Part shown: piece by piece, positions 10,491-30,483 of the stretch
How positions within the stretch are numbered: the first letter of the stretch is position 1
Layout of the letters: each line of letters begins with the position of its first letter
Assembly (NCBI GenBank): GCA_903889265.1
Contig: CAISWS010000058.1
Span: 1 to 36,259, forward strand
Reading direction: 5' to 3'
Length of the DNA: 36,259 nt
DNA from: an uncultured Bacteroidota bacterium
GTDB taxonomy: Bacteria; Bacteroidota; Bacteroidia; Chitinophagales; LD1
Made by a program: the position numbers and the translations under genes
Notes under the pieces: model-generated
What the model saw: only the letters and a program-made list of their open reading frames with translations
The model's database searches: none
What the model was told of the DNA's origin: nothing

Positions 10491-11594
10491 ATGAAATATT
10501 TTTTCTCGTCGTTATTTTTGGTTTCTGTTCTGTTTTCATCTGCCCAAATGGACCTTTTGGATAGTATGATGACCAGCAATGAGAAACATGAAAGGGAGTA
10601 TGTAGCATACACCTTCAAAATGACCAGGATTATTAATGGCCAGTCGGTTGAAATGACTAAAAAAGGCGCGCTTGATTTTCAGATAAGCCACCGGTTTGGA
10701 GATGCGTTTGCAACCAAAACTGATAATATCCATAATCTTTTCGGGTTTGACCTTGCTTCGGATATAGGTATAACATTTGACTATGGTATTACGGATGATT
10801 TATCGGTAGGAACGGAGAGAATGAAAGGCCAGGGCGAAAGTATTTTAGTGCCAGCGAAGGGCGGCACTACCACCCAAATGGCCAGCCCAACCGAACTTTG
10901 GGACCTGCATGCCAAATACAGGGTATTAAAGCAAACTACCGATTTTAAAATTCCTGTTACTATAGATTTGTATGGCAATGTTTGTATAAGCAGTGCTTTA
11001 AAATCAAACGATTCATCTCAGCTGGATTATTATCCCAAAGGCTATGCGGGGTTTTCGCACCGTTTAAGCTACCTGTTACAGGGGCTTATTGCTACTAAAG
11101 CCACCAACTGGCTTTCGGTGCAGCTGGAACCGACTTTTGTGTGGAGAAACCTGGTACCTTCAAATGATAAAAACGGCCTTTTTGCGTTAGGCCTTTCAGC
11201 CCGTGCGAAATTTAATAAGCGCACCGCTATTATTTTTGAATACTATATACCCTGCCAAAAATCGGGGATAGGAGACAGAATACCATTTGCCATGGTTCGT
11301 GGAAAGCAAAATGCGGGCTACTATTCGGCGTTGAATGTTGGAGTGGAGTTTGAGACAGGAGGACACGTTTTTCACGTTAACCTGAGCAATACTGCTGGTT
11401 TGCTGGAGAACGACTATATCCCTTATAATGCGCACAACTGGGCACAAGGGCAAATGCGTTTAGGGTTCACTATTTCACGCAGTTTCCCGCTGGATAAAAA
11501 GCACCGCGGTGGTAAATACTGGAAGAAGGGTAGTGTAGAAGACCCGGATCCTAAAAAAGATGACAACAACAAAAACGTGCAGATAATCAGGTAA
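10491..11594 (+). CDS. DUF5777 family outer-membrane beta-barrel protein
   Basis: Signal peptide; DFQISHRFGDAFATKTDNIHNLFGFDLASDIGITFDYGITDDLSVGTER...; directly after yceI, a common pairing. Confidence 0.85.
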   Translation: MKYFFSSLFLVSVLFSSAQMDLLDSMMTSNEKHEREYVAYTFKMTRIINGQSVEMTKKGALDFQISHRFGDAFATKTDNIHNLFGFDLASDIGITFDYGITDDLSVGTERMKGQGESILVPAKGGTTTQMASPTELWDLHAKYRVLKQTTDFKIPVTIDLYGNVCISSALKSNDSSQLDYYPKGYAGFSHRLSYLLQGLIATKATNWLSVQLEPTFVWRNLVPSNDKNGLFALGLSARAKFNKRTAIIFEYYIPCQKSGIGDRIPFAMVRGKQNAGYYSALNVGVEFETGGHVFHVNLSNTAGLLENDYIPYNAHNWAQGQMRLGFTISRSFPLDKKHRGGKYWKKGSVEDPDPKKDDNNKNVQIIR

Positions 11595-13152: not shown

Positions 13153-16100
13153 TTACTGAATAATTAACCTGCCATAAGCCAGCGGCTTATGGTCTGTATA
13201 AATGCCATATAAATAAATGCCTGCGGAAAGACCGCCGCGGTTTAATTGAAACTGGTTTGTTGAAATAGATGTGAACGTTTTTATATGTCTGCCGGCTATA
13301 TCCATCAGTTCAAAATCGTAAGGGAATTTAATGCCATCCGTTAATACAATGGCCATATCGGAAAACGGGTTTGGGAATACCTTAACGTTTACCGCGTTAC
13401 CGGCAACTTCAGAAACAGCCAAAGGAAAAGGTATATAATTGGCTACCGTATTAGTGTGGGCCGGCGGTAAAGTATCAAAGAAAATCAGCGCTTTATTACG
13501 GATAGTTGCACCCGGTTGAATACCCGGTTTAAACTTAGCTGTGAATGATACAAACCCGGCGCTGGCTAAAACATTGGTTGCACTATCGGGCAGGTTTGCG
13601 GGGTTAAACACCCAGGTTAGCACTGCACCGGGCATGATAGAAAACTGGCTGAACAGCGGACTGGACGCAACATTGACTATGCTTTGCGGGTTGAGCCAGA
13701 AGGAAAGTGAGTCGGTGATTTTTATGGTATGAACAGTATCGGCACCCGTATTTTGAAAGTGGATGGTATAAGTAAGTAATGAATCTGCTTCGGTAATGTT
13801 ACCATCAGGGAACACTTCTTTTGATATGGGAACTGCGGGAAGGCCTGCGATTTCGTTCGTGTAAACAGAGTTATTGGTGGTGTCGCAGTCGCCGGTGTAA
13901 GGTTCTATATGAAAACTGTTTTTTAGCGGATATGTTGCAGGGAGGCCTGGTGTAAGGCCAAAGGAAGCCTGCACCCTATTGGCCCAGAGGAACCCGGGTG
14001 AAGGAATACTATCAACCCGCCAGGTAAGCATGTGATTGACTGCATCATTAACCGGTGTGGGTATGCCGGATAGGAAAGTAAGGTTAGGATCGTAATTAAA
14101 GGTGATGGTGGCCGAATCGGTGTAAGGGGTCAGGAAGGCATGATTGGCGTATAATATCCAGTACTGCTTTTGCAGATTTGAATCAACCGGGGCCCATCCG
14201 GCCTGAATGGCAAGGTCGAAATCCGGGGAACCTACAAACCCGAAATTGTGATTTGTAAAAGTGTTGTTCAGTGTTGTAAATGTTACAGTATCCGCAGCAG
14301 GGCATACCTCAAAATATCCGCACCCGCCACCGCCATACAACAAAATGGCCGAACTTGAATTTACTGCTGTAATGATGTTGTACCTACCAGTGTCGCTAAC
14401 CGGTATGGTATACTGCCCGGATAAATTAGTAAGCCCTGAAAACGTGACGTTGTTGTTGGTAGCCAGAACCGTTAAACCTGCAATACCATGTTCGCTACTA
14501 TCCAGGTGGCAATTTGCATTGGCATCCAAGAAAACAGTGCCGGTGATATAACCTGTGCAGTTAAACTGAACATTGGCGCTGCCGGTGCGGGTACAACCAA
14601 CGGAATCGGTCACGGAAACGTTGCAGGTGCCAATATACAGGCTATCGGCGGTGGAAGTAATTTGGGGTGGCTGGCTGCCCCACAAGTAGGTATAAGGCGG
14701 AATGCCCGTAGTTATATTTGCGGTGGCAGATCCTATACTATCGCAATTGCCGATGGTTACAGTTGTTGTGACCTGGTGGTAACTGCTATCAATGATTACA
14801 TTATCAGAAATAGTGCATCCAAATGCATCGGTAACTTTTACTGTATAGCTGCCGGTTGCCAGCCCGGTAGCAGTATCAGTTGTTTGTGCGGGTGTAGTAT
14901 TCCACCGGTAGGTGTAAGGCGCTAACCCGCCTGACAGCATAACAAAAGCGCTGCCATTACTGATATTTTTGCAGCTTACACTAAGGCCAGTTGTTTGTTG
15001 GGTAACTGCATTATTTATTTGCGAAATATTGTAAGTTTTGCTTGCCGAGCAGTTTGCATGGTCGGTAACGGTAACAGTATATGAACCGGCCAGCAGGCCG
15101 GCTAAAGTGTCGCCGGTGGTTGCTGTACTCCAATGTGCGGTATACGGAGGGCTGCCCTGGCCAGGTGCAATTACAATTACGCCCCGGTTTATTTCGCAGC
15201 TGAAATCCTGGCGGACCAGGGTATTAATGGATATGCCCAGGTTTTGAATAGTATCAGTGGCAACCGCAAAGCAACCGGCCGAATCGGTTACGCTTACCTG
15301 GTAAATGCCCACAGGAAGATTGAAAATATCGGGTGCCGTTGAGCCCGTACTCCATACATAATGAACAGGGCCATTGTTTCCTGAAGGGGAGGCAAATAAA
15401 AAGCCTGCAGCATGCTGGCAGCTAATGTTAGTTACAGTACTAAACGAAACGGTTAAAGAACTTTGACGTGGGTATACATTGGCTGACGCTACAGCAGAGC
15501 ATCCGGTGGTATCGGTAACCGTTAAGTTATAAGCTCCAGGGCAAAGATTTAAAATGCCCGCATTAGTAGCTCCGTTAGACCAGCGGTATTTAAAGGTTGC
15601 AGAGACACCGCCGGAAGCCGTGGCAATAGCAGAACCATCGCATGCCCCGCACGATGACGTACTATCGGCTTGTACCGACGTGATGATGGCAGGTGGCTGG
15701 GTTATACTAAAGTTGGTACTGGCCGTGCAGTTATTTACATCAGTAATAGTTATAGTGTAGTTGCCGGCTACAAGGTTAAAGAGCGTGCTGTCTTTTAAAT
15801 TACCCTGGTAACCAGTGGACCATATAAAGCCGTACTGTGTGCCTGTACCACCGGTGGCATTGAACCTTACATATCCGTTATTACGGCCATAGCAAGGTAC
15901 ATTGGTTATACTTAAAGGTGAGATGGCCAGCAGGGCGGGTTGTTGTATGGTTACATTCAAAGTGTCAATTGCCATGTAAGCGCTATCGCTTATGGTACAC
16001 TGATAGTTTGCTGCGCAGAGGTTGGAAATGCCGGTTGTGGTATCGCCGGTGCTCCATAAATAATGATATATGCCTGCGCCCGGGTTAATTACCTGTGCGG

Positions 16101-16212
16101 AGCCATTGCAAGAACCATTGCACAGGCAGTTGGTGCTGCTAATAGCCAGCTGTGCCTTCAAACAAACGCAGGTAACCAATGTAAGTATCAGAAAGGGCAG
16201 AAATCTTCTCAT
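13153..16212 (-). CDS. SprB-repeat-containing T9SS-secreted surface protein with SdrD-B-like domain
   Basis: About seven repeats of the type 'GG.pPYTYrWsTG.tt..i.nL.aGtYtVtVTDa.GC'; GYITGTVFLDANANCHLDSSEHGIAGLTV; IHFQNTGADTVHTIKITDSL; T9SS CTD VFPNPFSDMAIVL...AGIYLYGIYTDHKPLAYGRLIIQ. Confidence 0.88.
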   Translation of the reverse strand: MRRFLPFLILTLVTCVCLKAQLAISSTNCLCNGSCNGSAQVINPGAGIYHYLWSTGDTTTGISNLCAANYQCTISDSAYMAIDTLNVTIQQPALLAISPLSITNVPCYGRNNGYVRFNATGGTGTQYGFIWSTGYQGNLKDSTLFNLVAGNYTITITDVNNCTASTNFSITQPPAIITSVQADSTSSCGACDGSAIATASGGVSATFKYRWSNGATNAGILNLCPGAYNLTVTDTTGCSAVASANVYPRQSSLTVSFSTVTNISCQHAAGFLFASPSGNNGPVHYVWSTGSTAPDIFNLPVGIYQVSVTDSAGCFAVATDTIQNLGISINTLVRQDFSCEINRGVIVIAPGQGSPPYTAHWSTATTGDTLAGLLAGSYTVTVTDHANCSASKTYNISQINNAVTQQTTGLSVSCKNISNGSAFVMLSGGLAPYTYRWNTTPAQTTDTATGLATGSYTVKVTDAFGCTISDNVIIDSSYHQVTTTVTIGNCDSIGSATANITTGIPPYTYLWGSQPPQITSTADSLYIGTCNVSVTDSVGCTRTGSANVQFNCTGYITGTVFLDANANCHLDSSEHGIAGLTVLATNNNVTFSGLTNLSGQYTIPVSDTGRYNIITAVNSSSAILLYGGGGCGYFEVCPAADTVTFTTLNNTFTNHNFGFVGSPDFDLAIQAGWAPVDSNLQKQYWILYANHAFLTPYTDSATITFNYDPNLTFLSGIPTPVNDAVNHMLTWRVDSIPSPGFLWANRVQASFGLTPGLPATYPLKNSFHIEPYTGDCDTTNNSVYTNEIAGLPAVPISKEVFPDGNITEADSLLTYTIHFQNTGADTVHTIKITDSLSFWLNPQSIVNVASSPLFSQFSIMPGAVLTWVFNPANLPDSATNVLASAGFVSFTAKFKPGIQPGATIRNKALIFFDTLPPAHTNTVANYIPFPLAVSEVAGNAVNVKVFPNPFSDMAIVLTDGIKFPYDFELMDIAGRHIKTFTSISTNQFQLNRGGLSAGIYLYGIYTDHKPLAYGRLIIQ

Positions 16213-17087: not shown

Positions 17088-17606
17088 TTACGTTATTAAG
17101 TAGTTATCACCTACACAGGCCCTGGATAATATTGATTGCTACTATCCTGTTTTTTCAAAGCTCTTTGGAGGGTAACTTCCAGACCCCTCTCACTGTTAAA
17201 TCTTCATCAACATATCTTAAAGTGCCGGCACATGTTTCCACACTTTTGGCTTAAAACAAGGGGTAACGGACGGTTTTGCCAAAATATATAATTAAAAAGG
17301 TGGCAAAAAAACCAACAGAACGGGGCGAAGTGATTTTTCTTAAATTTTTTTTGTTTGTAATAGATGAATATTTGAAAACTATTGTTTACTATTACACTTG
17401 TATTGTAGTAAGAGCCTATCGAAAGTGCTTAACCTCTTGTGTCAGCGAAACGATTAAGCCGTTTAATTTTTTTTAGTGTTGCAATTTTGGTCTTAAATGC
17501 AACTTTCCCCTCCGGATGGTTGTCATAAATGGACGGATTGCGTTTTTTATTAACTTTTCAGGGTGCCCCCCTGTCGCTGAACCATTTTAACTTTATAATT
17601 AAACTA

Positions 17607-20600
17607 ATGTTTATGTTAAACATCCACTTTAAGAAACTGTTTTTTGCGGTAGCCATCCAGTTTCTTTGCCTCGCATCGTTTGCGCAATGCCCCGGCGGCT
17701 TTACTACTTCTGTTTCGCCGTCAACCGCTACCGTTTGTTCAGGCAGTTCTGTATCCCTAACTGCAGCAGCAGGTGCGATAAGCTATCTCTGGAGCACAGG
17801 CCAAACTTCTTCAGTTATAAGCGCAACGCCTACCGTTAGTACCTCCTATACTGTTACAGCTACCGATTCAGTTGGTTGCAGTGCCAGTGCAACGGCTTTA
17901 ATAACTGCGGCAGCTTTACCATCGGTTTCAATAAGCCCGGCTAGTCCGGCAACGTGTCCCGGTGCGGCAGTTACTTTAACTGCATCGGGTTCTGCTTCAA
18001 CTTATACCTGGAGCAATGGTGCTACCACCAGCTCCATAACGGTTAACCCCACCAGCACAACCATTTATTCGGTGTTGGGTAATGGCGGAGGTTGCTCAAA
18101 CTCTGCCAGTGTTACGGTAACTGTAAACTCATTACCATCTATAGGAATAAATACCGGATTGGGCCATGTTTGCTCAGGAGGTACAGATACTATAACAGCA
18201 AGTGGGGGCGTGGCTTATTTGTGGAGCACCGGGGCCACCACGGCGGCCATCGTTAATCACCCTACAGTTACTACCAGTTATACGGTAACAGCAACCGGCA
18301 GCAACGGTTGCAGCGCTACAACTACAGCTTCGATTCCGGTATATGGCCCGGCAACTGTAAGCCCCGGGTCGGCGTCATCTTGCCCGGGCAGTGCGGTTGT
18401 GTTAACCGCCAACGGCGGTACTTCATACGGATGGAGTACCGGAGCAACCTCGCAGTCTATAACAGTGGCCCCAACAACCACTACTACCTACCGAGTAACT
18501 GCAACAAACAGCTACGGTTGCGCAGGGGTTGATTCAACCCAGGCTACTGTTACCACAACGCCAACGGTTGTAACGGTAGCAACAAGCCCTTCAAATGGCG
18601 TATCGTGCAGCGGGGCAACTGTAACACTAACCGCCAGCGGGGCATCCACTTATGTTTGGAGTACGGGAGCGACTACTGCTTCTATTTCAGTAACACCGGT
18701 TAATACCACCACATATACAGTAACGGGCACCGCAAATGGTTGTACCGGCACTGCTACATCTACTATCACCGTTTACGGGCATGCGGTTATTACTCAAACT
18801 TATACCACCATTTGCGCAGGAAGTGCAGTTACTTTGGGTGCCACTATGGGCACCGGCTCGCATTATCTTTGGAGTACAGGTGATACAACTGCAACAATTG
18901 CAGAAAATCCTACAACCACTACTACTTATACGGTAACTGTTACTCCACCATCAGCTACCGGATGTTTAACAAGCTCTGCAACGGCAACGGTTACGGTTAA
19001 TGCCCTGCCTGCGGCGGCAATCAGCCCGGCATCGGCCACTATCTGCGCAGGCAGCTCTGCCACGCTTACAGCAACCGGAGGTACCAGTTATATATGGAAT
19101 TTTGGCAGCAACACGGTTGTTCAGACTTTAAGCCCTGCGGTTACCACAACTTATTCTATTACAGCAACCAATGCCGCAGGTTGTACTGCCAGTGCATCGG
19201 CTACCATAACAGTAAACAGTTTACCTGCTTTACCGGTTACTGTGAGTGCATCGCGTTGCGGCGCTGGTTCGGTAACATTAAGTGCTACCGGTGCCGGAAC
19301 CAACGAAAACTACAACTGGTATACAGCTGTAACCGGGGGTACCCTGGTGCAAAGCGGCGGGGCTACTTATACCACGCCATCATTATCAGCTAACACCACG
19401 TATTATGTAACCAAATTTAACACTGTAACAGGTTGCGAAGGTGGCCGGTGGTGGGTAACTGCCATTATTTACAGCGGAGTTCCTGCAGCGCCAACCATTT
19501 CTGCCGGGTCGGCTTTAACCTGCACTGGCTTTACAGCCAATTGGGGTTTAGGCTCAACCAGTTCAGTATTGGATTACAGGATTGATGTTGCAACAGACGC
19601 TGGCTTCTCAAATATTCTGAGTAGCTGGAACAATGTGAATGCCGGATATACTTCATCTGAACCAATAACAGGATTAACCGCCGGGGTTACGTATTACTAC
19701 AGGGTAAGGGCTGAAAATGCATGCGGGGTAAGTGCCAGTTCGAACGCGGTTGGGGTTACTACTGCATCTTCTGCTGTGCCGGTTTCAGCAGCGGCAACCA
19801 ATGTGGCCTGTAGTTCATTTACTGCCAACTGGGCTGCGGCTTCGGGTGCAAGCTCTTACATTATTGATGTTTCAACATCGGCAACATTTGCAACGTTCCT
19901 ATCAGGTTATAATGGCGTAAACGTAGGTAATGCAAGCGCCGTTACCATAGGGGGGCTTAGCGTGGGATCTACCTATTATTACAGGGTACGGTCAACCAAC
20001 GGATGTTTTATAAGCAGCAACTCTGCCGTGCAGACGGTTACCACCACTGCATCCGGCGCATGTTACTGCTCGCAATATGGATCAGCGACAGCAACAGCTG
20101 CCATTACAAATGTTACATTTAATACCATCAACTTTACCAACCTTACCAGGAGCGCCGGTTATGTGGACTATTCAGGCAGCTTATCAACCGCAGTTTCGCC
20201 AAGTAATGTTTACAGCCTTTCGGTAAGTGTAAATTCGGGCGGGGCCAATACGGTATATGCTAAAGTATGGATTGACTGGAACGAAAACGGGGTATTTGAC
20301 TCTACAGAACAATACCTGTTGGGTTCGGCAACCAACGTAACCAATGGTATTACTAACCTATCTCCTTTAAGTATAACAGTGCCTGCAGGTGCATTAACCG
20401 GAAGTACCATTATGCGTGTGGAGGTTAAAAACGGAGCTTATGGCTCGCCTTGCGATACCGGCATAGTTGGCCAGGTTGAGGACTATAAGGTTGTTGTGGG
20501 CTCTTGTTCCACACCGCCCTCAATAACCGTTACACCTGCAAGCACAACTGTATGTGCAGGACAGGCGGTTACACTTACTGCAAGTGGCGGAAGTTCCTAT

Positions 20601-23600
20601 CAATGGAGCAATGGTGCTACAACCGCCAGCCTGAACCTTAACCCAAGTAGCACCGGCACCTATATTGTAACGGGTACAAGCAGCCCGGGTTGCTCTGCCA
20701 CAGCCAGTTCAACTATTACTGTAAACGGAACGCTTACTGCAACCCTTACCGGCGGAAGTACACCAATTTGCTATAGCACATCTGCCGGTACACTCAGCGT
20801 TTCGGCAACAGGTGGCATTGGCACTTATACTTATCAGTGGTATAATTCTTCGGGCACTATTGCAGGTGCTACATCTACTACTTATGCAGTTCCGGCTTTA
20901 ACAGCCAGCAATTCATATTACTGTATAGTAACTGCAAGTACCTGTGGTTCGGCAACCTCTGCTACAAAAACAATTGCAGTTTATGCTAATTTAAGTGCTG
21001 CTATCAGCGGTGGTTCATCGCCAATTTGCTATAACTCTTCTCCGGGAACTTTAACTGCTACCGGCGCTGGTGCTACCGGCGCTTATACTTATCAGTGGTA
21101 TAATAGCAGTGGAGCTATTTCAGGGGCTACAGCAAGCACTTATGCGGTGGCGTCATTAACTGCCAACAATTCATATTATTGCGCTATAACCAGTGGCTCA
21201 TGTGGTACTGTATTTACAGCTACAACAGCTATTACGGTATATCCGGCTTCAACTTTAACTGTGAGTGGAGGAACCAGTCCAGTATGTGCTGGTGGTTCAC
21301 CAGGCACCTTTACTGCACTGGCGGCCGGAGGAAGCGGAAGTTATACTTACCAGTGGTATAACGCTGCAGGCAGTATTACCGGCGCCACGGCCAGCACTTA
21401 TGCTCCGGGGGCTATAACCGCAAATAATACATACCATTGTGTGCAAACCGGCTCATGTGGTGTTTCAAGTTCAAATTCAATAGTTATTACAGTTAATGCG
21501 GCACCTTCGGTTTATGCGTATGCTGCTGATTCTTCTATTTGTAACGGATCAAGTGTTGTGGTTGCAGCAAGTGCCACACCGGGCAGCGGAACTATTTCGG
21601 GTTACTTGTGGAGCCAGGGCAGTACTACATCTTCAATTACTGTAAGTCCGACTGCGTTTACTACTTATAATGTAACTGTAACCAACAGCAACGGTTGTAC
21701 CGCCAGTGGAACCACGTTTGTAAGTGTAACCCCCCGGCCTTCTGCACCGGTTGCCGGAAACAATTCGCCAATAGTTATAGGCCATCCTATCGATTTAACC
21801 GCTACCACAATTGCCGGTGCAAGCTATCAGTGGACCGGGCCAAACGGCTTTACTTCTACACAGCAAAATCCGGTAATAAGCAGTGCAACAACCGCCAATG
21901 CGGGTGTTTATACTGTGGTAGCACTGGTTAACGGTTGCAGCAGCTTAGCGGCAGCAACAAATGTTGCTATTAACGCCTTTACCTTGTTTATGGATACGGT
22001 TAGTGTAAATCCTGGCTCGCAGGCAGTGGTGCTGGTTAGGGTGCTTAACTTTACCATGATGCTATCGGCGCAATCAACTATTCACTTTGATACTGCCAAA
22101 TTGCAATTTGTACAGACACAGCAATACGGAATAAATACTTTAACCTCGGGTAATTTTGGAACAACACAGGCTGTAAACGGAAACATAGTATTCACATGGT
22201 CTGACCCGAACCTGGCCGGTGTTAGCTTGCCAAACGACAGCACATTCTTTGCGCTATTGTTTAATGTTCGCGGAGCTTTGGGTTCCAGTACCCCACTGAC
22301 CTTTACAAACACACTAGCACAATCTGAGTTTGTAGACACTTCGGTTAATACTATCAACTACGTTTTGAACCCGGGCGAGGTTATTATTAATGGCAATGAT
22401 ACTATCTCTGGCAAGATTGAATCAGAACTAGGTTACGGTGTGCAGGGCACTACAGTAACCGCCAGCGGAACCCCGACTTATACAGATGTAACCGATACAT
22501 CAGGCAAATACTCGTTTAACCTGTTACCGGGCAGCAGCTATACGGTTACACCAACCAAGAGTAACGACAGCACAGTAACCAACGGTATTACTACGCTTGA
22601 TTATCTGCTTGTACAGCGCCATATTCTGGGCACCACACTTTTAAATACACCTTACAAAATAATAGCTGCCGATGTGAACAGTTCAGGAACGGTTACTTCG
22701 CTTGACCTGTTGTATATCAGGGCGCTTATATTAGGTAATATTACTTCTTTCCCTGGTGGTAAACTATGGGCTTTTGTTCCTGCAAGTTATACTTTCAGCA
22801 ATCCTTTGAATCCGTTCCCATTCCCGACTTCGCTTTCTTATTCAAGTGTGACACAACAGAATAACCAGAACTTTATAGGAATAAAACTGGGTGATGTGAA
22901 CGATTCGTGGAACCCGTTGGTAAAATCACTTCAGAGTAGTAATACTGTAAACCTGATGACACCTGAAATGACTGCGTTGCCTGGTGGAGAGATATCAGTA
23001 CCTATCAAGGCAAGCAACTTTAAGCAGATAAGCGGTATGCAGTTTACGATGGAGTGGGATCCATCGATACTTAAATTCAGTTCGGTTGACAGCACAAGTG
23101 GCGCCCTTACTGTTAGCTATGGCGAAAGCAAAACCAGTGCTGGTTTACTGAGCATACAATGGACAGACCCTAACTATGCATCAACAACTATTGCAGATGA
23201 CAGCGTTCTGTTCTATATAGCATTTAAAGTAACCGGCCAACCCGGAGAAACCAGCCCAATGGCGATTGTATCGAAAATTACTGCAATTGAAATTGTAGAC
23301 AACGACCTGAACGAACTTGGCTTTAACGTAAATAACGGTGCGGTTAAAATTACTTCAGCTACGGCGGTTAACAGCATCAGTGGAATTAAAGACCCGGGTG
23401 TTGCGGTAATGCCAAATCCGTTTACTGAACATACCCAGTTATCGTTTGAATTGTATAATGCCGGTGATGTGAAGATTGAGATTTACAATGAACTTGGACA
23501 GCTGGTTACTACCTACGATGGCAACTACGGTGCAGGTAAACACCAGATAGAAATTGGCAATAACTGGAGCTCGGGATTATATTTTGTCCGCTTTAGCACC

Positions 23601-23645
23601 GGTGATTATATTACCACTTTGCGCATTGCAAATACAACTAAATAA
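17607..23645 (+). CDS. Giant T9SS-secreted multidomain protein: Ig-like repeats, two FN3, GEVED, three 258-bp Ig-like repeats, cohesin - dockerin-like - cohesin, T9SS CTD
   Basis: Signal peptide MFMLNIHFKKLFFAVAIQFLCLASFAQ; WSTGATT-type Ig repeats; GEVED core WIDWNENGVFD...GQVEDYKV; cohesin-like FTLFMDTVSVNPGSQAVVLVRV...STIHFDTAKLQF; dockerin-like NGITTLDYLLVQRHILG...DVNSSGTVTSLDLLYIRALILG; CTD MPNPFTEHTQLSFEL...SGLYFVRFSTGDYITTLRI. Confidence 0.88.
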   Translation: MFMLNIHFKKLFFAVAIQFLCLASFAQCPGGFTTSVSPSTATVCSGSSVSLTAAAGAISYLWSTGQTSSVISATPTVSTSYTVTATDSVGCSASATALITAAALPSVSISPASPATCPGAAVTLTASGSASTYTWSNGATTSSITVNPTSTTIYSVLGNGGGCSNSASVTVTVNSLPSIGINTGLGHVCSGGTDTITASGGVAYLWSTGATTAAIVNHPTVTTSYTVTATGSNGCSATTTASIPVYGPATVSPGSASSCPGSAVVLTANGGTSYGWSTGATSQSITVAPTTTTTYRVTATNSYGCAGVDSTQATVTTTPTVVTVATSPSNGVSCSGATVTLTASGASTYVWSTGATTASISVTPVNTTTYTVTGTANGCTGTATSTITVYGHAVITQTYTTICAGSAVTLGATMGTGSHYLWSTGDTTATIAENPTTTTTYTVTVTPPSATGCLTSSATATVTVNALPAAAISPASATICAGSSATLTATGGTSYIWNFGSNTVVQTLSPAVTTTYSITATNAAGCTASASATITVNSLPALPVTVSASRCGAGSVTLSATGAGTNENYNWYTAVTGGTLVQSGGATYTTPSLSANTTYYVTKFNTVTGCEGGRWWVTAIIYSGVPAAPTISAGSALTCTGFTANWGLGSTSSVLDYRIDVATDAGFSNILSSWNNVNAGYTSSEPITGLTAGVTYYYRVRAENACGVSASSNAVGVTTASSAVPVSAAATNVACSSFTANWAAASGASSYIIDVSTSATFATFLSGYNGVNVGNASAVTIGGLSVGSTYYYRVRSTNGCFISSNSAVQTVTTTASGACYCSQYGSATATAAITNVTFNTINFTNLTRSAGYVDYSGSLSTAVSPSNVYSLSVSVNSGGANTVYAKVWIDWNENGVFDSTEQYLLGSATNVTNGITNLSPLSITVPAGALTGSTIMRVEVKNGAYGSPCDTGIVGQVEDYKVVVGSCSTPPSITVTPASTTVCAGQAVTLTASGGSSYQWSNGATTASLNLNPSSTGTYIVTGTSSPGCSATASSTITVNGTLTATLTGGSTPICYSTSAGTLSVSATGGIGTYTYQWYNSSGTIAGATSTTYAVPALTASNSYYCIVTASTCGSATSATKTIAVYANLSAAISGGSSPICYNSSPGTLTATGAGATGAYTYQWYNSSGAISGATASTYAVASLTANNSYYCAITSGSCGTVFTATTAITVYPASTLTVSGGTSPVCAGGSPGTFTALAAGGSGSYTYQWYNAAGSITGATASTYAPGAITANNTYHCVQTGSCGVSSSNSIVITVNAAPSVYAYAADSSICNGSSVVVAASATPGSGTISGYLWSQGSTTSSITVSPTAFTTYNVTVTNSNGCTASGTTFVSVTPRPSAPVAGNNSPIVIGHPIDLTATTIAGASYQWTGPNGFTSTQQNPVISSATTANAGVYTVVALVNGCSSLAAATNVAINAFTLFMDTVSVNPGSQAVVLVRVLNFTMMLSAQSTIHFDTAKLQFVQTQQYGINTLTSGNFGTTQAVNGNIVFTWSDPNLAGVSLPNDSTFFALLFNVRGALGSSTPLTFTNTLAQSEFVDTSVNTINYVLNPGEVIINGNDTISGKIESELGYGVQGTTVTASGTPTYTDVTDTSGKYSFNLLPGSSYTVTPTKSNDSTVTNGITTLDYLLVQRHILGTTLLNTPYKIIAADVNSSGTVTSLDLLYIRALILGNITSFPGGKLWAFVPASYTFSNPLNPFPFPTSLSYSSVTQQNNQNFIGIKLGDVNDSWNPLVKSLQSSNTVNLMTPEMTALPGGEISVPIKASNFKQISGMQFTMEWDPSILKFSSVDSTSGALTVSYGESKTSAGLLSIQWTDPNYASTTIADDSVLFYIAFKVTGQPGETSPMAIVSKITAIEIVDNDLNELGFNVNNGAVKITSATAVNSISGIKDPGVAVMPNPFTEHTQLSFELYNAGDVKIEIYNELGQLVTTYDGNYGAGKHQIEIGNNWSSGLYFVRFSTGDYITTLRIANTTK
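20740..21495 (+). repeat. Three tandem Ig-like coding repeats with 258-bp period
   Basis: CAGTGGTATAA(T/C) (QWYN) anchors at 20835, 21093 and 21351: spacing 258 and 258 bp (86 codons). Confidence 0.85.
21985..22390 (+). other. Cohesin-like domain 1 of the 17607 protein
   Basis: LFMDTVSVNPGSQAVVLVRVLNFTMMLSAQSTIHFDTAKLQFVQTQQYG...FTWSDPNLAGVSLPNDSTFFALLFNV; same module as in the neighbouring gene. Confidence 0.7.
22535..22760 (+). other. Dockerin type I-like duplicated segment
   Basis: NGITTLDYLLVQRHILG and DVNSSGTVTSLDLLYIRALILG; second copy retains D-x-N-x-S-G-x5-D loop spacing, first is degenerate. Confidence 0.7.
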
Positions 23646-23681: not shown

Positions 23682-23721
23682 AAAAGTGTCGTCCCCTTTA
23701 TTCCAAAAGGGGGCGACTTTT
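23682..23721 (+). terminator. Terminator between the two giant genes
   Basis: AAAAGTGTCGTCCCCTTT-attcc-AAAAGGGGGCGACTTTT: long near-perfect stem ending in TTTT. Confidence 0.75.
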
Positions 23722-23934: not shown

Positions 23935-26900
23935 ATGCAACATTATTACGCGATAAAGACATTCAGATTTTTTAAAATACTGATTGCGGCTATAATACTA
24001 CTGGCGGCTGATAGCTCCGGGGTGATGGCTTCCAATACAGTTGCTTTATCTATGGATACGGTAACTATTCCCATAGGGCAGCAGGTGGTGGTGAATGTAA
24101 AGGCCTGGGATTTTATCATGATGCTGGCCGCGCAGGGAACGATTGGCTTTGATACTTCTGAGCTTAGTTTTGTGGACGTGGAGCAATTTGGAACGGCGAG
24201 CCTGATTACATCGAACTTTGGCACCAGTCATGCTGCCAGCGGGTATATTACTTTTTCGTGGACCGACCAAACCCTGTTAGGCACTACTATAGCGAACGAC
24301 ACGGAGTTTTTTGCCATACGGTTTTTAGTAAAAAATACGGCCTGCCAGAATACAGCAGTTTCTTTTCTGAATTCGCCCACACCACAACAATACGTTGACA
24401 CTTCGTTTAACCAAATACCCGATACTCTTTTTCCAGGTTTGGTTATACCAACCGGGTTAAGTATTGCGGCATCTGTATCACCTCTTAACCCATCTATCTG
24501 CAGCGGACAAAACGTTACTTTAACCGCCAGCGGTGCCAGTAACTTTTTATGGAGTACCGGGTCAATAACTGATACCATACATGTAAGCCCTGGTGCTACT
24601 GCTGTATACACGGTAACGGCTACAAATTCAAACGGGTGCAGTGCCCAGGCATCGGATACCGTAGTGGTGTCAACCAGTGTTGCACCAACGGTAAATGTTA
24701 ATGCAAGCCAAACAACAATCTGCTCAGGTACTAACGTAATATTTACAGCTACGCCAACTAATGGGGGCAATACTCCGGCATATCAATGGAAGAAAAACGG
24801 GATTAATGTGGGCACCAACAGTGCCGGTTATAGCAACAACGCATTAAATAATAATGATTCGGTTTGGGTGGTGTTAACATCCAGCTCAACATGCGCAAGC
24901 CCGGATAGTGCGAAGAGTAATGTGACCCATATTGCTGTCAGCTCGGGGGTGGTGCCTGCAGTAAGCGTTCATGCAAGCCAGACCAGCATTTGCGGAAGTG
25001 CCAGTGTAACATTTACAGCCACCCCAACCAATGGCGGACCAACACCAAATTATCAATGGAAAAAAAATGGTAACAATGTGGGCACTAACAGTGCAGTATA
25101 CATTGATAACGGCTTGAATAATAACGATTCAGTTTGGGTAGTACTTACATCAAGTTTAATTTGTGCCATCCCCATAACTGCGACTAGCCTTAAAACGAAA
25201 ATGACGGTTAACCCGATTCCAACCGCGCCGGTTGCAGGAAGCAACTCACCGGTAACAAGTGGTGGGACTATTAACCTTACCGCCGGAAATATAAGCAACG
25301 CCACCTACATATGGAGTGGGCCGAACGGCTATAGTTCAACGCAACAAAACCCGGCTATAACCGGTGCAACAACAAGCAACACCGGTACTTACCAGGTAAT
25401 AGCAACGGTTAATGGATGCAACAGCCTGGCATCATCGGTTACAGTAACGGTTAATAACCCGGTTACCGGGTTTGTGTTATTTATGGATACTGTTACCGGT
25501 GCAGCAGGCCAGCAGGTAGTGGTGCATGTAAGGCCTGAAGGATTTGTAATGATGTTATCTGCACAGGGGGCAGTTGGTTTTGATACCTCAGAATTGCATT
25601 TTGTAGATGTTGAACAATTTGGCATAGGTAGTCTTACAAGTTCAAATTTTGGAACGGGTAGTGCCGCTAACGGGAATATCAGTTTTTCATGGACTGATCC
25701 CACATTAAGCGGAACTACGATAGCCAACGACTCGGAATTTTTTGCTATCCGTTTTGCCGTTCAGGCTGGTGCCTGCCGAAATACAGCTGTGAGCTTTTTG
25801 AACTCGCCTACAACGTTGGAATTTGTTGATACTTCTTTTAACACCATTGCTTTTATGGTATACAATGGCATGGTAAAGCCTACCGGCGCGGGGATAATAG
25901 CCACTATTTCGCCGGTTAATCCATCAACCTGCAGCGGACAGAATGTTGTTTTAACCGCAAGTGGTGGTACTGGTTTTACATGGAGCGATAGTAGTTTGAC
26001 AGATACCGTACATGTTGGCCCAGCCAGCACCACAATTTATACGGTTACAGTTACTAATAACAACGGGTGCAGTGCCCAGGCATCAGACACTGTAATTGTG
26101 GGAACCAATGTTGTGCCCACTGTAAGTGTAAATGCCAGCCAAACCACCATCTGCACAGGCACCAATGTAATATTTACTGCCACACCAGCCAACGGAGGCG
26201 GTGCCCCGACTTATCAATGGGAAAAGAACGGAGTTAATGTTGGCACCAACAATGCCGGCTACAGCGATAACTCGCTAAATAATAACGATTCCGTTTGGGT
26301 GGTTTTAACTTCGAGTTCTACCTGTGCCAGTCCGGATACCGCTAAGAGTAATGTTACACATATTACTATAAACACAGGGGTAGTGCCTTCTGTAAGTATT
26401 AATGCAAGCCAGACAATCCTTTGTGCCAATACTAATGTAACGTTTACCGCTACCCCAACAAATGGCGGCCTTACTCCAACCTATCAATGGAAAAAGAACG
26501 GCAGCAATGTTGGCACCAGTAGCGCTACTTATAGTGATAATGGCTTAAACAATAATGATTCGGTTTGGGTGGTGCTTACATCAGGTTTAAGTTGTGCAAG
26601 CCCGGCTACTGCCACAAGTAACAAAGAAAAAATGACAGTTAACCCGATACCATCTGCACCCGGCGCGGGAAGCAACTCGCCCGTAACAACCGGTGGAACG
26701 ATTAACCTTACTGCCGGAAATATAAACAACGCCACCTACCAATGGAGCGGGCCGAACGGCTATACATCAACGCAGCAAAATCCGGGTATAAACGGCGCTA
26801 CACTTAGTAACAGTGGTACTTACCAGGTAATAGCAACCGTGAACGGATGTAATAGTCTGGCTTCGTCAGTAACAGTAACTGTAAATAACCCGGTTGGAAG

Positions 26901-29900
26901 TTTTGTTTTGTTTATGGATACAGTTACAGCTGTAGCAGGACAACAGGCAGTAGTGCATGTAAGAACAAGGGATTTTACCATGATGTTATCGGCACAGGGA
27001 ACTATTGGATTTGATACTTCAGAATTACAATTTACAGATGTTGAACAATTTGGCACTGCCAGTTTAATAAGCTCGAACTTTGGCACCGGCGGTGCTGCGA
27101 ATGGTTATATTACTTTTTCGTGGACAGACCAGACCTTGAGCGGAACCACCATCGCAACCGACTCGGAGTTTTTTGCCATGCGCTTTACCATAGCTGCAGG
27201 GGCCTGTAACAAAACACCTGTTAGTTTTTTAAATACGCCAACTTCGCTAGAGTTTGTAGATACATCTTTTAGCCCGATAAGCTATGCGCTTTATCCCGGC
27301 ATGGTTGTGCCTACCGGCGGAAGCACTGTGGCCACGGTTAGCCCTGTTGGGCCGGTTGTTTGCAGTACGCAAAGCACTACGTTAACTGCCGGCAGCGGTG
27401 CATCGTACAACTGGAGCACCGGAGCCACTACTAATTCCATAACGGTTAACCCTGCCAATACCACTGTTTATAAGGTGACAGTTACTAATGCTAACGGATG
27501 CAGCGCACTGGCTTCAGATACAGTACATGTAGCTGGCACTGTTGTTCCTTCCATAGTTGTAAACGCAAGTCAAACAACTGTATGTCCCGGTACTACGGTT
27601 GTGTTTACGGCTACGCCAACCAACGGAGGAGCGGCTCCCGGTTACCAATGGAAAAGGAATGGCGGTAACGCGGGTACGGATAGCGTGGTTTTCAGCAGCA
27701 ACTCACTAAACAATAACGATTCGGTTTGGGTGGTGTTAACTTCCAGTTCATCGTGCGCAAGTCCGGTGATGGCGAAAAGCAATGTGGAGCATATTACTAT
27801 AAGCCCTATAGTTGCCCCATCGGTAATTGTAAGTGCCAGCCAGACTACAGTGTGTGCCGGTAGTACGGTTGTATTTACAGCTACCCCAACCAACGGGGGC
27901 GTGGCCCCGGCTTACCAGTGGAAGAAGAATGGTAACAGTGTAGGTACAGATAGTTCGGTTTACAGTGATAATTCTTTAAGTAATAACGATTCGGTTTGGG
28001 TGGTGTTAACTTCAAGCTCGGGTTGTGCAAGCCCGGCCAGCGCTGTGAGCAATGTTACCTATGTTACGGTTAACACAAATGTTGTTCCTTTAGTAACTGT
28101 AGTTGCAAGCCAGACTACTATTTGTACGGGTACCGGTGTAACCTTCACCGCAACCCCTGCTAATGGTGGAACAGCCCCGGTATATCAATGGAAAAAGAAT
28201 GGCAACAACACAGGAACCAACAATGCGGTTTATACAGATAATTCGCTGAGTAATAACGATTCGGTTTGGGTGGTACTTACTTCAAATGCCACTTGTGCCA
28301 GCCCGGCAACTGCTGTAAGTAACGTTACGCATATTACCGTAAGCACCAGTGTGGTGCCTTCGGTAAGTATAAGTGCCAGCCAGACAACTATATGCACCGG
28401 CAGCAATGTGTTGTTTACTGCTATCCCAAGCAACGGGGGGCTTACACCAGCTTATCAATGGCAGAAGAACGGTAATAATGTGGGCACCAATAGTGCAACT
28501 TACAGTGATAATGGCTTAAACAATAATGATTCTGTTTGGGTTACGATGGTTTCAAGTGTGGGTTGTGCCAGCCCGGCTTCTGCTGCCAGTAACAAGGTAC
28601 TTATTACTGTTAGTACTACGGTATTGCCTGTGGTAACGGTAAGCGCCAGCCCTGCAACAATATGCGCCGGCGCTACCGTTACATTTACTGCCACACCTGT
28701 AAATGGTGGAATTACACCTGTTTATCAGTGGGTGAAGAACGGCACTAATGTTAGTAGCAACAGCGTGGCGTATGGGGACAATACCCTGAACCCGGGCGAT
28801 TCGGTTTGGGTAGTATTGACCTCAAGCGCCGGTTGTGCAAACCCAACCTCTGTAACAAGTAATAAAACTGGTGTTACAGTAAATCCGGTTCCGGTGTTAC
28901 CTGTAGCAGGAAGCAACTCGCCTGTAACGGTTGGCGGTACAATTAGCCTTACGGCCAGTTCCACAAATGGTGCCAGGTATCAATGGAGTGGCCCGGCTGG
29001 TTATGGTTCGGCCCTGCAAAACCCATCGATCTTCAATGCCACACTGGCTATGACCGGTACTTACCAGGTAATTGCTACTTTAAACGGGTGCCACAGCCTG
29101 GCGGCAACGGTAGCTGTAACGGTAAATGCTGCTGCTGCCAACGTTGTTTTGTATATGGATACAGTAAGCGGAAACGATGGCCAGCAGGTGGTAGTTGATA
29201 TGAGGGCAATTAATTTTGCAATGATGGTATCGGCACAGGGCACCATAGGATTTGATACCTCAAAGCTTCAATTTGTTGATGTGGAGGATTTTGGATTAAG
29301 CGGCCTTAACGGTACGGACTTTGGTACCTCAAATGCGTTAAGCGGTTACATTGCTTTTGCCTGGAATGACCCGACTTTAACCGGTAATAGTATCAGTAAT
29401 GATTCTGAATTTTTTGCCATCCGGTTTAAGGTGGCTTCCGGCATATGCACCGGCACAACCGTTACTTTCCTGAACGGGCCTACCGCTTCGGAATTTGTTG
29501 ATACCAGCTTTAATTCGCTCAACAGCACCTTGCTACCCGGAAAAGTGAATGCGATTTTTGTGGCAAGCGACAGTACGATTAGCGCCAATGGACCGACTGT
29601 ATTTTGCGAGGGGGACAGTGTTATTTTAAACGCCGTTGCCGGAGATACATATGCCTGGAGTAACCAATCTACCGCACAAAGTATTATTGTGCATGCAAGT
29701 GGCAATTACCTGGTAACCATAACCAACAGCAATAATTGTAGTGCCGTTTCATCAGCAACTACAGTAACTGTAAACACTAACCCGACGGCTACGGTTACGC
29801 CGGGCACAGCAGCTTTCTGCGCTGGTGACAGCGTTAGATTGAGTGCTGCAGGCGGCTCAACCTATTTATGGAGCAATAGTTCAACATCGCAAAACATTGT

Positions 29901-30483
29901 TGTGTCAACCAGCGCTAATTATAAAGTAACTGTTACCAACAGCAATAACTGTAGCGCGGTAAGTGCACCTGTTACTGTAACGGTTAATCCGTTGCCTTCG
30001 GTAAGTTTTACATTACCCGCAGATACTATTTGCCTGCACGCAAGCCCGCTGACTATTACAGGAGGTTCGCCAACGGGCGGGGCATATAGCGGTACGGCGG
30101 TTAGCGGCGGTATATTTAATCCTTCAACAGCGGGCCAGGGTAATTTTAATATTACCTATGCTTACACAGATGGAAACAACTGCTCTGCCTCTGCAACGGC
30201 CTCTATTAAGGTAGAGATTTGCGAAGGTGTTGATATAATTACCCCTTTTAACTGGAGTATCTATCCGAACCCTGCCAACAGCAATTTAACCATTAGCATG
30301 GAGGCCGAATCAGTACCTGCTGCGTTTGTGGTATATGATGTGTTGGGCAATAAAATAACCGACGGGGAAATTACTACCGGTAAATATTTATTGGATGTAA
30401 ATAAATACGCTACAGGATTGTACTACCTTAAAGTTTACCGCGGACAGGAAATGGATGTTAAATCTTTTGTGGTAGTTAAATAA
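23935..30483 (+). CDS. Giant T9SS-secreted protein with four cohesin-like modules, nine 90-aa Ig-like repeats and additional Ig-like domains
   Basis: 2182 aa; signal peptide; four copies of 'MDTV...GQQvVV.vr..dF.MMlSAQGtiGFDTSeLqFvDVEqFG...WtDptL.GttI.nDsEFFAiRF'; CTD IYPNPANSNLTISMEAE...ATGLYYLKVYRGQEMDVKSFVVVK. Confidence 0.9.
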   Translation: MQHYYAIKTFRFFKILIAAIILLAADSSGVMASNTVALSMDTVTIPIGQQVVVNVKAWDFIMMLAAQGTIGFDTSELSFVDVEQFGTASLITSNFGTSHAASGYITFSWTDQTLLGTTIANDTEFFAIRFLVKNTACQNTAVSFLNSPTPQQYVDTSFNQIPDTLFPGLVIPTGLSIAASVSPLNPSICSGQNVTLTASGASNFLWSTGSITDTIHVSPGATAVYTVTATNSNGCSAQASDTVVVSTSVAPTVNVNASQTTICSGTNVIFTATPTNGGNTPAYQWKKNGINVGTNSAGYSNNALNNNDSVWVVLTSSSTCASPDSAKSNVTHIAVSSGVVPAVSVHASQTSICGSASVTFTATPTNGGPTPNYQWKKNGNNVGTNSAVYIDNGLNNNDSVWVVLTSSLICAIPITATSLKTKMTVNPIPTAPVAGSNSPVTSGGTINLTAGNISNATYIWSGPNGYSSTQQNPAITGATTSNTGTYQVIATVNGCNSLASSVTVTVNNPVTGFVLFMDTVTGAAGQQVVVHVRPEGFVMMLSAQGAVGFDTSELHFVDVEQFGIGSLTSSNFGTGSAANGNISFSWTDPTLSGTTIANDSEFFAIRFAVQAGACRNTAVSFLNSPTTLEFVDTSFNTIAFMVYNGMVKPTGAGIIATISPVNPSTCSGQNVVLTASGGTGFTWSDSSLTDTVHVGPASTTIYTVTVTNNNGCSAQASDTVIVGTNVVPTVSVNASQTTICTGTNVIFTATPANGGGAPTYQWEKNGVNVGTNNAGYSDNSLNNNDSVWVVLTSSSTCASPDTAKSNVTHITINTGVVPSVSINASQTILCANTNVTFTATPTNGGLTPTYQWKKNGSNVGTSSATYSDNGLNNNDSVWVVLTSGLSCASPATATSNKEKMTVNPIPSAPGAGSNSPVTTGGTINLTAGNINNATYQWSGPNGYTSTQQNPGINGATLSNSGTYQVIATVNGCNSLASSVTVTVNNPVGSFVLFMDTVTAVAGQQAVVHVRTRDFTMMLSAQGTIGFDTSELQFTDVEQFGTASLISSNFGTGGAANGYITFSWTDQTLSGTTIATDSEFFAMRFTIAAGACNKTPVSFLNTPTSLEFVDTSFSPISYALYPGMVVPTGGSTVATVSPVGPVVCSTQSTTLTAGSGASYNWSTGATTNSITVNPANTTVYKVTVTNANGCSALASDTVHVAGTVVPSIVVNASQTTVCPGTTVVFTATPTNGGAAPGYQWKRNGGNAGTDSVVFSSNSLNNNDSVWVVLTSSSSCASPVMAKSNVEHITISPIVAPSVIVSASQTTVCAGSTVVFTATPTNGGVAPAYQWKKNGNSVGTDSSVYSDNSLSNNDSVWVVLTSSSGCASPASAVSNVTYVTVNTNVVPLVTVVASQTTICTGTGVTFTATPANGGTAPVYQWKKNGNNTGTNNAVYTDNSLSNNDSVWVVLTSNATCASPATAVSNVTHITVSTSVVPSVSISASQTTICTGSNVLFTAIPSNGGLTPAYQWQKNGNNVGTNSATYSDNGLNNNDSVWVTMVSSVGCASPASAASNKVLITVSTTVLPVVTVSASPATICAGATVTFTATPVNGGITPVYQWVKNGTNVSSNSVAYGDNTLNPGDSVWVVLTSSAGCANPTSVTSNKTGVTVNPVPVLPVAGSNSPVTVGGTISLTASSTNGARYQWSGPAGYGSALQNPSIFNATLAMTGTYQVIATLNGCHSLAATVAVTVNAAAANVVLYMDTVSGNDGQQVVVDMRAINFAMMVSAQGTIGFDTSKLQFVDVEDFGLSGLNGTDFGTSNALSGYIAFAWNDPTLTGNSISNDSEFFAIRFKVASGICTGTTVTFLNGPTASEFVDTSFNSLNSTLLPGKVNAIFVASDSTISANGPTVFCEGDSVILNAVAGDTYAWSNQSTAQSIIVHASGNYLVTITNSNNCSAVSSATTVTVNTNPTATVTPGTAAFCAGDSVRLSAAGGSTYLWSNSSTSQNIVVSTSANYKVTVTNSNNCSAVSAPVTVTVNPLPSVSFTLPADTICLHASPLTITGGSPTGGAYSGTAVSGGIFNPSTAGQGNFNITYAYTDGNNCSASATASIKVEICEGVDIITPFNWSIYPNPANSNLTISMEAESVPAAFVVYDVLGNKITDGEITTGKYLLDVNKYATGLYYLKVYRGQEMDVKSFVVVK
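24052..25482 (+). repeat. Cassette A (cohesin-like, Ig, 2 x 270-bp units, Ig)
   Basis: From the ATGGATAC anchor at 24052 to the next at 25483: exactly 1431 bp. Confidence 0.88.
25483..26913 (+). repeat. Cassette B (cohesin-like, Ig, 2 x 270-bp units, Ig)
   Basis: Anchor 25483 to 26914: exactly 1431 bp; same domain order as cassette A. Confidence 0.88.
26914..29154 (+). repeat. Cassette C (cohesin-like, Ig, 5 x 270-bp units, Ig)
   Basis: Anchor 26914 to 29155: 2241 bp = 1431 + 3 x 270. Confidence 0.88.
27553..28902 (+). repeat. Five consecutive 270-bp Ig-like coding repeats
   Basis: The GAT of (N/G)DSVWV falls at 27718, 27988, 28258, 28528 and 28798: all spacings 270 bp. Confidence 0.9.
29155..29555 (+). 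other. Fourth cohesin-like module
   Basis: YMDTVSGNDGQQVVVDMRAINFAMMVSAQGTIGFDTSKLQFVDVEDFG...AWNDPTLTGNSISNDSEFFAIRF. Confidence 0.7.

What the first reader, a model, noticed from the sequence alone, without database searches (positions are those of the whole stretch)
23935..30483. Length-quantised cohesin cassette architecture: exact 1431-bp super-period with 270-bp sub-period
Cohesin anchors (ATGGATAC) fall at 24052, 25483, 26914 and 29155. The spacings are 1431, 1431 and 2241 bp, and 2241 = 1431 + 3 x 270. The NDSVWV anchors inside the cassettes (24856/25126, 26287/26557, 27718/27988/28258/28528/28798) are all 270 bp apart within a cassette and 1431 bp apart between cassettes. The copies differ at many synonymous positions, yet no indel has accumulated. 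That suggests old duplications under strict length constraint rather than recent slippage. It reads like a modular surface filament whose length is adjusted by adding whole 90-aa units, here three extra units in cassette C only.
Basis: seen in the sequence. Interest (0 to 1): 0.75.

Follow-up and report, generated by a model that had tools for sequence, protein, structure and literature searches.

The report
Secreted cohesin–immunoglobulin surface stalk protein
A giant secreted bacterial surface protein really is built from evenly spaced repeated blocks, but the even spacing is simply the natural length of a very common building block; the more interesting point is that its four 'socket' domains lie next to a gene carrying the only matching 'plug' domain found in the genome.

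Summary
ORF 23935-30483 (2182 aa) has cohesins at 24052/25483/26914/29155 and nine 90-aa Ig units. Cassette spacing is 1431, 1431 and 2241 (= 1431 + 3x270) bp, with no net length change. Synonymous sites are close to saturated and the longest exact repeat is 32 bp, so this is old duplication, not slippage or an assembly artefact. The 270-bp period belongs to a widespread Bacteroidota Ig unit: in ten other arrays from related genomes 74 of 101 spacings are exactly 90 aa and all lie within 88-91. The 1431-bp period is a five-domain cassette duplicated whole, so 'length quantisation' needs no special mechanism (P of zero length changes about 0.03). Active length adjustment is untested: no congener has the gene. 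Most likely it is a T9SS-exported, non-cellulosomal cohesin scaffold/adhesin on an Ig stalk. A dockerin gene directly upstream of a cohesin gene recurs in 14 of 74 loci across Bacteroidota, against 1 of 54 in the opposite order. I infer, but have not shown, that the two proteins dock.

The parts
23935..30483 (+). Cohesin/Ig stalk protein (2182 aa): COH-Ig-2xIg90-Ig | COH-Ig-2xIg90-Ig | COH-Ig-5xIg90-Ig | COH-Ig(s)-T9SS tail
23935..24033 (+). Probable Sec signal peptide (MQHYYAIKTFRFFKILIAAIILLAADSSGVMAS)
   Evidence: read directly from the translation; no predictor run
24052..24459 (+). Cohesin A
   Evidence: PF00963 40.9 bits, cut-off 24.1
25483..25890 (+). Cohesin B
   Evidence: PF00963 46.1 bits
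26914..27321 (+). Cohesin C
   Evidence: 73 and 69% identical to B and A; not listed by PF00963 itself but 241.5 bits with the local cohesin profile it is part of
29155..29562 (+). Cohesin D
   Evidence: PF00963 50.5 bits
24466..24696 (+). Ig_7-like domain of cassette A (same in B 25897-26127, C 27328-27558)
24697..25236 (+). Ig90 units A1, A2
26128..26667 (+). Ig90 units B1, B2
27559..28908 (+). Ig90 units C1-C5
25237..25482 (+). Distal PKD/Ig_7-like domain of cassette A (same in B 26668-26913, C 28909-29154)
30259..30474 (+). T9SS type A sorting domain (Por_Secre_tail)
   Evidence: PF18962 43.4 bits; TIGR04183 30.2 bits
17529..23645 (+). Upstream partner gene (2038 aa): Ig_7 array, fn3, GEVED, cohesin, carboxypeptidase-reg-like domain, dockerin, cohesin, T9SS tail
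21990..22397 (+). Cohesin 1 of partner gene (fifth ATGGATAC anchor); groups with cohesins A-D
22401..22583 (+). CarboxypepD_reg-like linker domain of partner gene
22587..22727 (+). Dockerin type I, the only PF00404 match in the genome (second F-hand loop DVNSSGTVTSLD)
22968..23351 (+). Cohesin 2 of partner gene, directly after the dockerin
23409..23609 (+). T9SS sorting domain of partner gene
23688..23717 (+). Likely intrinsic terminator between the two genes (12-pair stem, T tail), so probably separate transcripts

Best explanation
The 23935-30483 gene encodes a type IX-secreted, non-cellulosomal cohesin scaffold/adhesin: four cohesin domains held at set distances on a stalk of Ig-like domains. 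SHOWN by sequence: domain content, T9SS signal, saturated duplications, unit length fixed by the Ig unit, and a neighbouring T9SS protein with cohesin-dockerin-cohesin. INFERRED: the neighbour's dockerin plugs into the cohesins here (and perhaps into cohesins of its own kind), so that the two proteins assemble a multivalent extracellular fibre or mat used for adhesion. History inferred from trees: one 'first-type' and one 'last-type' Ig90 unit formed a five-domain cassette, the cassette was duplicated, and cassette C later expanded (or A and B contracted) by three first-type units. The 1431- and 270-bp periods follow from domain lengths.
For: Cohesins: over Pfam's cut-off; profile hits solved cohesins 5nrm/1g1k/2vn5 at E 1e-12 to 1e-9; the predicted structure of the partner's cohesins matches solved cohesins at target-normalised TM about 0.8. 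Dockerin: 34.9 bits against cut-off 22.9, the only one in a 99.5%-complete genome. T9SS tails on both proteins and SprA at 2359 bits in the genome. Gene order: a cohesin-only gene directly downstream of a dockerin gene on the same strand in 14 of 74 loci with room, from 14 genomes, against 1 of 54 upstream (Fisher P = 0.004); those loci were fetched by the dockerin gene alone. Co-occurrence: 122 of 124 cohesin-bearing genomes of the order also have a dockerin (inflated by one large family). Ig90 length. Local amplification: nine units form one clade among 135 (0.91), with A1/B1 and A2/B2/C5 grouping by position; cohesins A-D, partner cohesin 1 and the C387 cohesin form one clade.
Against: No binding evidence. 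The dockerin's first loop (DSTVTNGITTLD) lacks usual calcium ligands at positions 3 and 5. The dockerin region was predicted with low confidence (pLDDT about 40-66) and gave no docked pose. In most sister pairs the cohesins are three in tandem at the N-terminus, not interspersed with Ig units. Most dockerin genes (60 of 74) have no cohesin gene downstream. A terminator-like hairpin separates the two genes.
Confidence: 0.6

Rival explanations
1. Plain fibrillar stalk: the cohesin folds here are just further beta-sandwich stalk domains and bind no dockerin; the protein is a generic T9SS surface fibre.
For: Genome rich in similar Ig/PKD giants (181 matches); Ig90 arrays without cohesins are common in relatives; only one dockerin for about eight cohesins.
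Against: The lone dockerin sits in the next gene, and dockerin-then-cohesin order recurs in distant taxa; cohesins are under strong purifying selection.
Confidence: 0.25
2. Length-adjustable 'Periscope-like' protein whose unit number varies between strains to set how far the N-terminal cohesin projects.
For: Whole-unit difference 2, 2, 5 between cassettes; N-terminal cohesin; array of folded domains.
Against: Published Periscope arrays have highly identical repeats, e.g. [quoted passage not shown] Here units are 56-77% identical in DNA, synonymous sites saturated, longest exact repeat 32 bp.
Confidence: 0.08
3. Prey-capture or surface hook related to the Aureispira grappling hook protein GhpA.
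For: GhpA (9flp) is by far the best PDB match to the Ig part, E 5e-161 with 30 stretches; both are T9SS substrates (GhpA per PMC11205867).
Against: The similarity lies in widespread Ig/PKD units; the cohesin profile does not hit GhpA at E<=0.01; 2182 against 5898 aa; no evidence on oligomers.
Confidence: 0.05
4. Assembly artefact: unit number or cassettes created by mis-joining repeats.
For: Draft assembly of 527 contigs; another cohesin gene of the same genome is broken over contigs C387/C265.
Against: Longest exact repeat 32 bp, pS near saturation, a single open frame of 6.5 kb.
Confidence: 0.02

Closest known systems
Non-cellulosomal cohesin/dockerin modules (Peer et al. 2009, known here only through its citation in PMC6030884; structure 2xdh)
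   Same: Cohesin and dockerin domains outside a cellulosome; predicted extracellular
   Different: Cohesins interspersed with a regular Ig stalk, exported by T9SS, with the sole dockerin in the adjacent gene
T9SS dockerin-cohesin tail proteins of Bacteroidota with a downstream multi-cohesin gene (e.g. L134, L136, L140, L184)
   Same: Same gene order, a dockerin-cohesin tail as in the partner gene, T9SS tails on the downstream proteins tested
   Different: There the cohesins are mostly three in tandem at the N-terminus, 142-148 aa apart; here they are 477 or 747 aa apart
Aureispira grappling hook protein GhpA (9flp)
   Same: Long array of related Ig/PKD-like units, T9SS substrate
   Different: No cohesin detected; much longer; forms heptameric hooks
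Periscope proteins (SasG, Rib, Sgo_0707)
   Same: Elongated arrays of folded repeats on the cell surface
   Different: Periscope repeats are highly identical and vary between strains; these are anciently diverged
TMEM132 / coherin cohesin-Ig adhesion proteins of animals and choanoflagellates
   Same: Cohesin followed by Ig-like domains, predicted adhesion
   Different: Single cohesin, eukaryotic membrane proteins; resemblance of architecture only
Cellulosome scaffoldins
   Same: Several cohesins on one secreted protein
   Different: No carbohydrate-binding module found, no enzyme with a dockerin, different export

Membership tests
Cohesin domain (PF00963) | Profile score over curated cut-off | tested here: met
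   A, B, D and both partner cohesins over cut-off; C by close similarity to A and B
Cohesin domain (PF00963) | Cohesin fold | tested here: met
   Model of the partner's two cohesins matches solved cohesins, target-normalised TM about 0.8. The model of a P0001 cassette itself failed (pLDDT 45)
Cohesin domain (PF00963) | Binds a dockerin | not testable with these tools
   Needs a binding assay
Dockerin type I (PF00404) | Profile score over cut-off | tested here: met
   34.9 bits against 22.9
Dockerin type I (PF00404) | Two calcium-binding F-hand loops | tested here: inconclusive
   Second loop DVNSSGTVTSLD standard; first loop DSTVTNGITTLD degenerate (read)
T9SS cargo | C-terminal sorting domain | tested here: met
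   both proteins
T9SS cargo | T9SS machinery in the genome | tested here: met
   SprA, 2359 bits; other components not searched
Cellulosome scaffoldin | Several dockerin-bearing enzymes to recruit | tested here: not met
   One Dockerin_1 in the genome, on a protein with no enzyme domain
Cellulosome scaffoldin | Carbohydrate-binding module | tested here: not met
   No such Pfam match in either protein
Periscope protein | Highly identical repeats | tested here: not met
   Units 56-77% nt identical, longest exact repeat 32 bp
Periscope protein | Unit number varies between strains | not testable with these tools
   No orthologue among 17 congeners; one genome per species held
Fibrillar adhesin | Tandem stalk domains | tested here: met
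   Ig/PKD arrays
Fibrillar adhesin | At least one adhesive domain | tested here: inconclusive
   Cohesin is the only candidate and is not mentioned in the published survey's main text (PMC8286594)
GhpA grappling hook | Homology along the whole protein | tested here: not met
   Only Ig/PKD units match; the cohesin profile misses GhpA

The most novel reading that the evidence does not exclude
A dedicated two-gene, T9SS-exported dockerin/cohesin module recurs across Bacteroidota and builds a non-cellulosomal, calcium-dependent multivalent surface fibre. The upstream protein carries both plug and sockets and could polymerise; the downstream multi-cohesin protein is the scaffold. This genome's version spaces its sockets along an Ig stalk instead of clustering them.
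Probability: 0.35. Interest if true: 0.6.

Novelty: new variant of a known kind. Interest (0 to 1): 0.35.

Why it matters
As length quantisation the finding is ordinary: it restates the fixed length of a common Ig unit. Its value lies next door. Bacterial cohesin-dockerin pairs are among the strongest known protein contacts (PMC6030884), and their role outside cellulosomes is, to my knowledge, largely unsettled. A compact locus with most of a genome's cohesins and its only dockerin, in a gene order that recurs in distant Bacteroidota, makes that question testable with two small recombinant domains.

Tried and rejected
Tandem Repeats Finder found nothing: its longest period is 500 bp and the copies are below its similarity threshold. 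Pfam hmmscan of the whole proteins did not list Cohesin even at E<=1, though the six-frame family search did, so whole-protein annotation misses it. The genome-contig scan with the local cohesin alignment found no relative, so named homologues came from the partner-core alignment. Structure prediction of a whole cassette was too poor to use (pLDDT 45); the partner core gave two good cohesins but no reliable dockerin pose. Rejected: slippage or recent amplification (saturated pS), assembly artefact (32-bp longest repeat), cellulosome (one dockerin, no enzyme), Periscope membership (diverged repeats). Considered and not claimed: strict selection on total length. The expected number of length changes is 3.5 with P(0) about 0.03, a post hoc estimate using a rate from Ig arrays only. 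Cohesin arrays in relatives show no such constancy (134-182 aa in most tandem arrays). Literature searches found no description of the gene pair, but the library is open-access only and Peer et al. 2009 is not held.
Full report
OBSERVATION. All coordinates and arithmetic in the finding are correct. The ORF 23935-30483 reads through 2182 aa. Cohesin anchors are spaced 477, 477 and 747 aa; within-cassette Ig anchors are 90 aa apart. A and B align without a gap; C aligns to both apart from three whole units. The ninth anchor is PGDSVWV. A fifth ATGGATAC, at 21990, lies in the upstream gene and was missed.

AGE OF THE DUPLICATIONS. pS between copies is 0.52-0.91 and dS is about 1.2 or more, or undefined, except for the A/B distal Ig (0.88); dN/dS is about 0.05-0.3. 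The longest exact repeat is 32 bp. So the copies are old, under purifying selection, and not an assembly product. The nine units form one clade (0.91) among 135 units, the rest from other arrays, and A1/B1 and A2/B2/C5 group by position. The simplest history is a two-type unit pair inside a cassette, cassette duplication, then expansion in C (contraction in A and B is also possible). Cohesins A-D, partner cohesin 1 and a cohesin at the end of contig C387 form one clade among 99.

IS THE EXACT PERIOD SPECIAL? No. The Ig90 unit occurs in 40 of 61 genomes (own plus relatives) at E<=1e-9. In ten arrays from relatives, with adjacent units differing at about 45% of residues, 74 of 101 spacings are exactly 90 aa, 18 are 89, 8 are 91 and 1 is 88. 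The unit's length is a property of the domain. Applying that array-derived rate of length change to this gene gives 3.5 expected changes and P(0) about 0.03: mild, post hoc, and not enough for a separate 'length constraint'. The 1431-bp period is the sum of five domains copied together. By contrast cohesin-to-cohesin distances in tandem cohesin arrays of relatives vary, mostly 134-182 aa.

WHAT THE PROTEIN IS. Probable signal peptide, four cohesins, Ig_7/PKD/Ig_3 stalk and a T9SS sorting domain. Cohesin identity is supported by Pfam, by profile hits to solved cohesins and, for the partner's cohesins, by predicted fold. The best PDB match to the stalk is the Aureispira grappling hook protein, but this reflects shared Ig/PKD units; GhpA has no cohesin by our profile.

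THE PARTNER GENE. The upstream gene 17529-23645 has Ig_7 repeats, fn3, GEVED, cohesin, a carboxypeptidase-regulatory-like domain, dockerin, cohesin and a T9SS tail. Its dockerin is the only Dockerin_1 in the 99.5%-complete genome; the same genome has about eight cohesins, six of them in this locus. Weak matches elsewhere to the linker-dockerin region were not reported by the dockerin profile. The core is conserved at 36-46% identity in a Chitinophagales MAG, Pontibacter and Botryobacter. The distance from cohesin 1 to dockerin is 178-193 aa in 22 of 24 examples (a few loci overlap), another sign that near-constant domain spacing is ordinary in these proteins.

GENE PAIR. Seventy-nine loci were fetched by similarity to the partner core alone; three loci fetched earlier were added for the count. 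Of 74 dockerin genes with at least 1.5 kb downstream, 14 (in 14 genomes, including Pontibacter aydingkolensis, Lewinella cohaerens and MAGs labelled Bacteroidales, Chitinophagaceae and Saprospirales) have a cohesin-only gene directly downstream on the same strand, gap -33 to 199 bp; upstream it is 1 of 54 (Fisher P = 0.004). Some loci are from the same genome, so the counts are not fully independent. In the window the gap is 289 bp and holds a strong terminator-like hairpin, so the two genes are probably not one transcript here. At order level, 122 of 124 genomes with this kind of cohesin also have a dockerin, against 88 of 275 without, but one family contributes 114 of the 124.

MECHANISM. 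Shown: composition, export signals, duplication history, adjacency. Inferred: calcium-dependent docking of the partner's dockerin into cohesins A-D, giving a multivalent surface assembly, with the partner's own cohesins allowing chain growth. Weak points: a degenerate first F-hand loop, no docked model, no binding data.

DISTRIBUTION. None of 17 congeners has the gene; one other family member (G020) has a single cohesin of this type, in an Ig90-dockerin-cohesin protein. The cassette architecture COH-Ig-nxIg90-Ig was not seen in any other fetched locus.

VERDICT. Observation confirmed; the length-quantisation reading is ordinary; the protein is a new variant of the non-cellulosomal cohesin scaffold/adhesin kind; the gene pair is the lead worth following.

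Noticed in passing
21990-23351, upstream gene 17529-23645: Fifth anchor and a cohesin-dockerin-cohesin core with the only Dockerin_1 of the genome, next to the reported gene.
   Followed up: yes
L066 (contig C387) 7830-8312 to contig end; L065 (contig C265) 171-914: A further cohesin gene is broken off: C387 ends shortly after an in-frame stop and foreign sequence, and C265 resumes in the same part of a cohesin, with a 24-bp inverted match at the two break points, as an inserted mobile element would leave. C265 also holds the start of yet another cohesin gene on the opposite strand.
   Followed up: partly
P0001, P0002, L134, L140: Pfam hmmscan of these long proteins lists no Cohesin although the six-frame family search or the local cohesin profile finds several; cohesins in giant T9SS proteins are probably under-annotated.
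   Followed up: partly
family f18 of the order, e.g. L077, L078, L080: 114 of the 124 cohesin-bearing genomes in the order sample belong to one family (probably Saprospiraceae, not confirmed), with arrays of up to 10 tandem cohesins and often 15 or more dockerins per genome.
   Followed up: partly
13153-16212 (-): Another T9SS protein with SprB repeats and DUF7619, on the opposite strand upstream of the pair.
   Followed up: no
10491-11594 (+): DUF5777 membrane beta-barrel protein.
   Followed up: no
23688-23717: Strong terminator-like hairpin between the dockerin and cohesin genes.
   Followed up: yes
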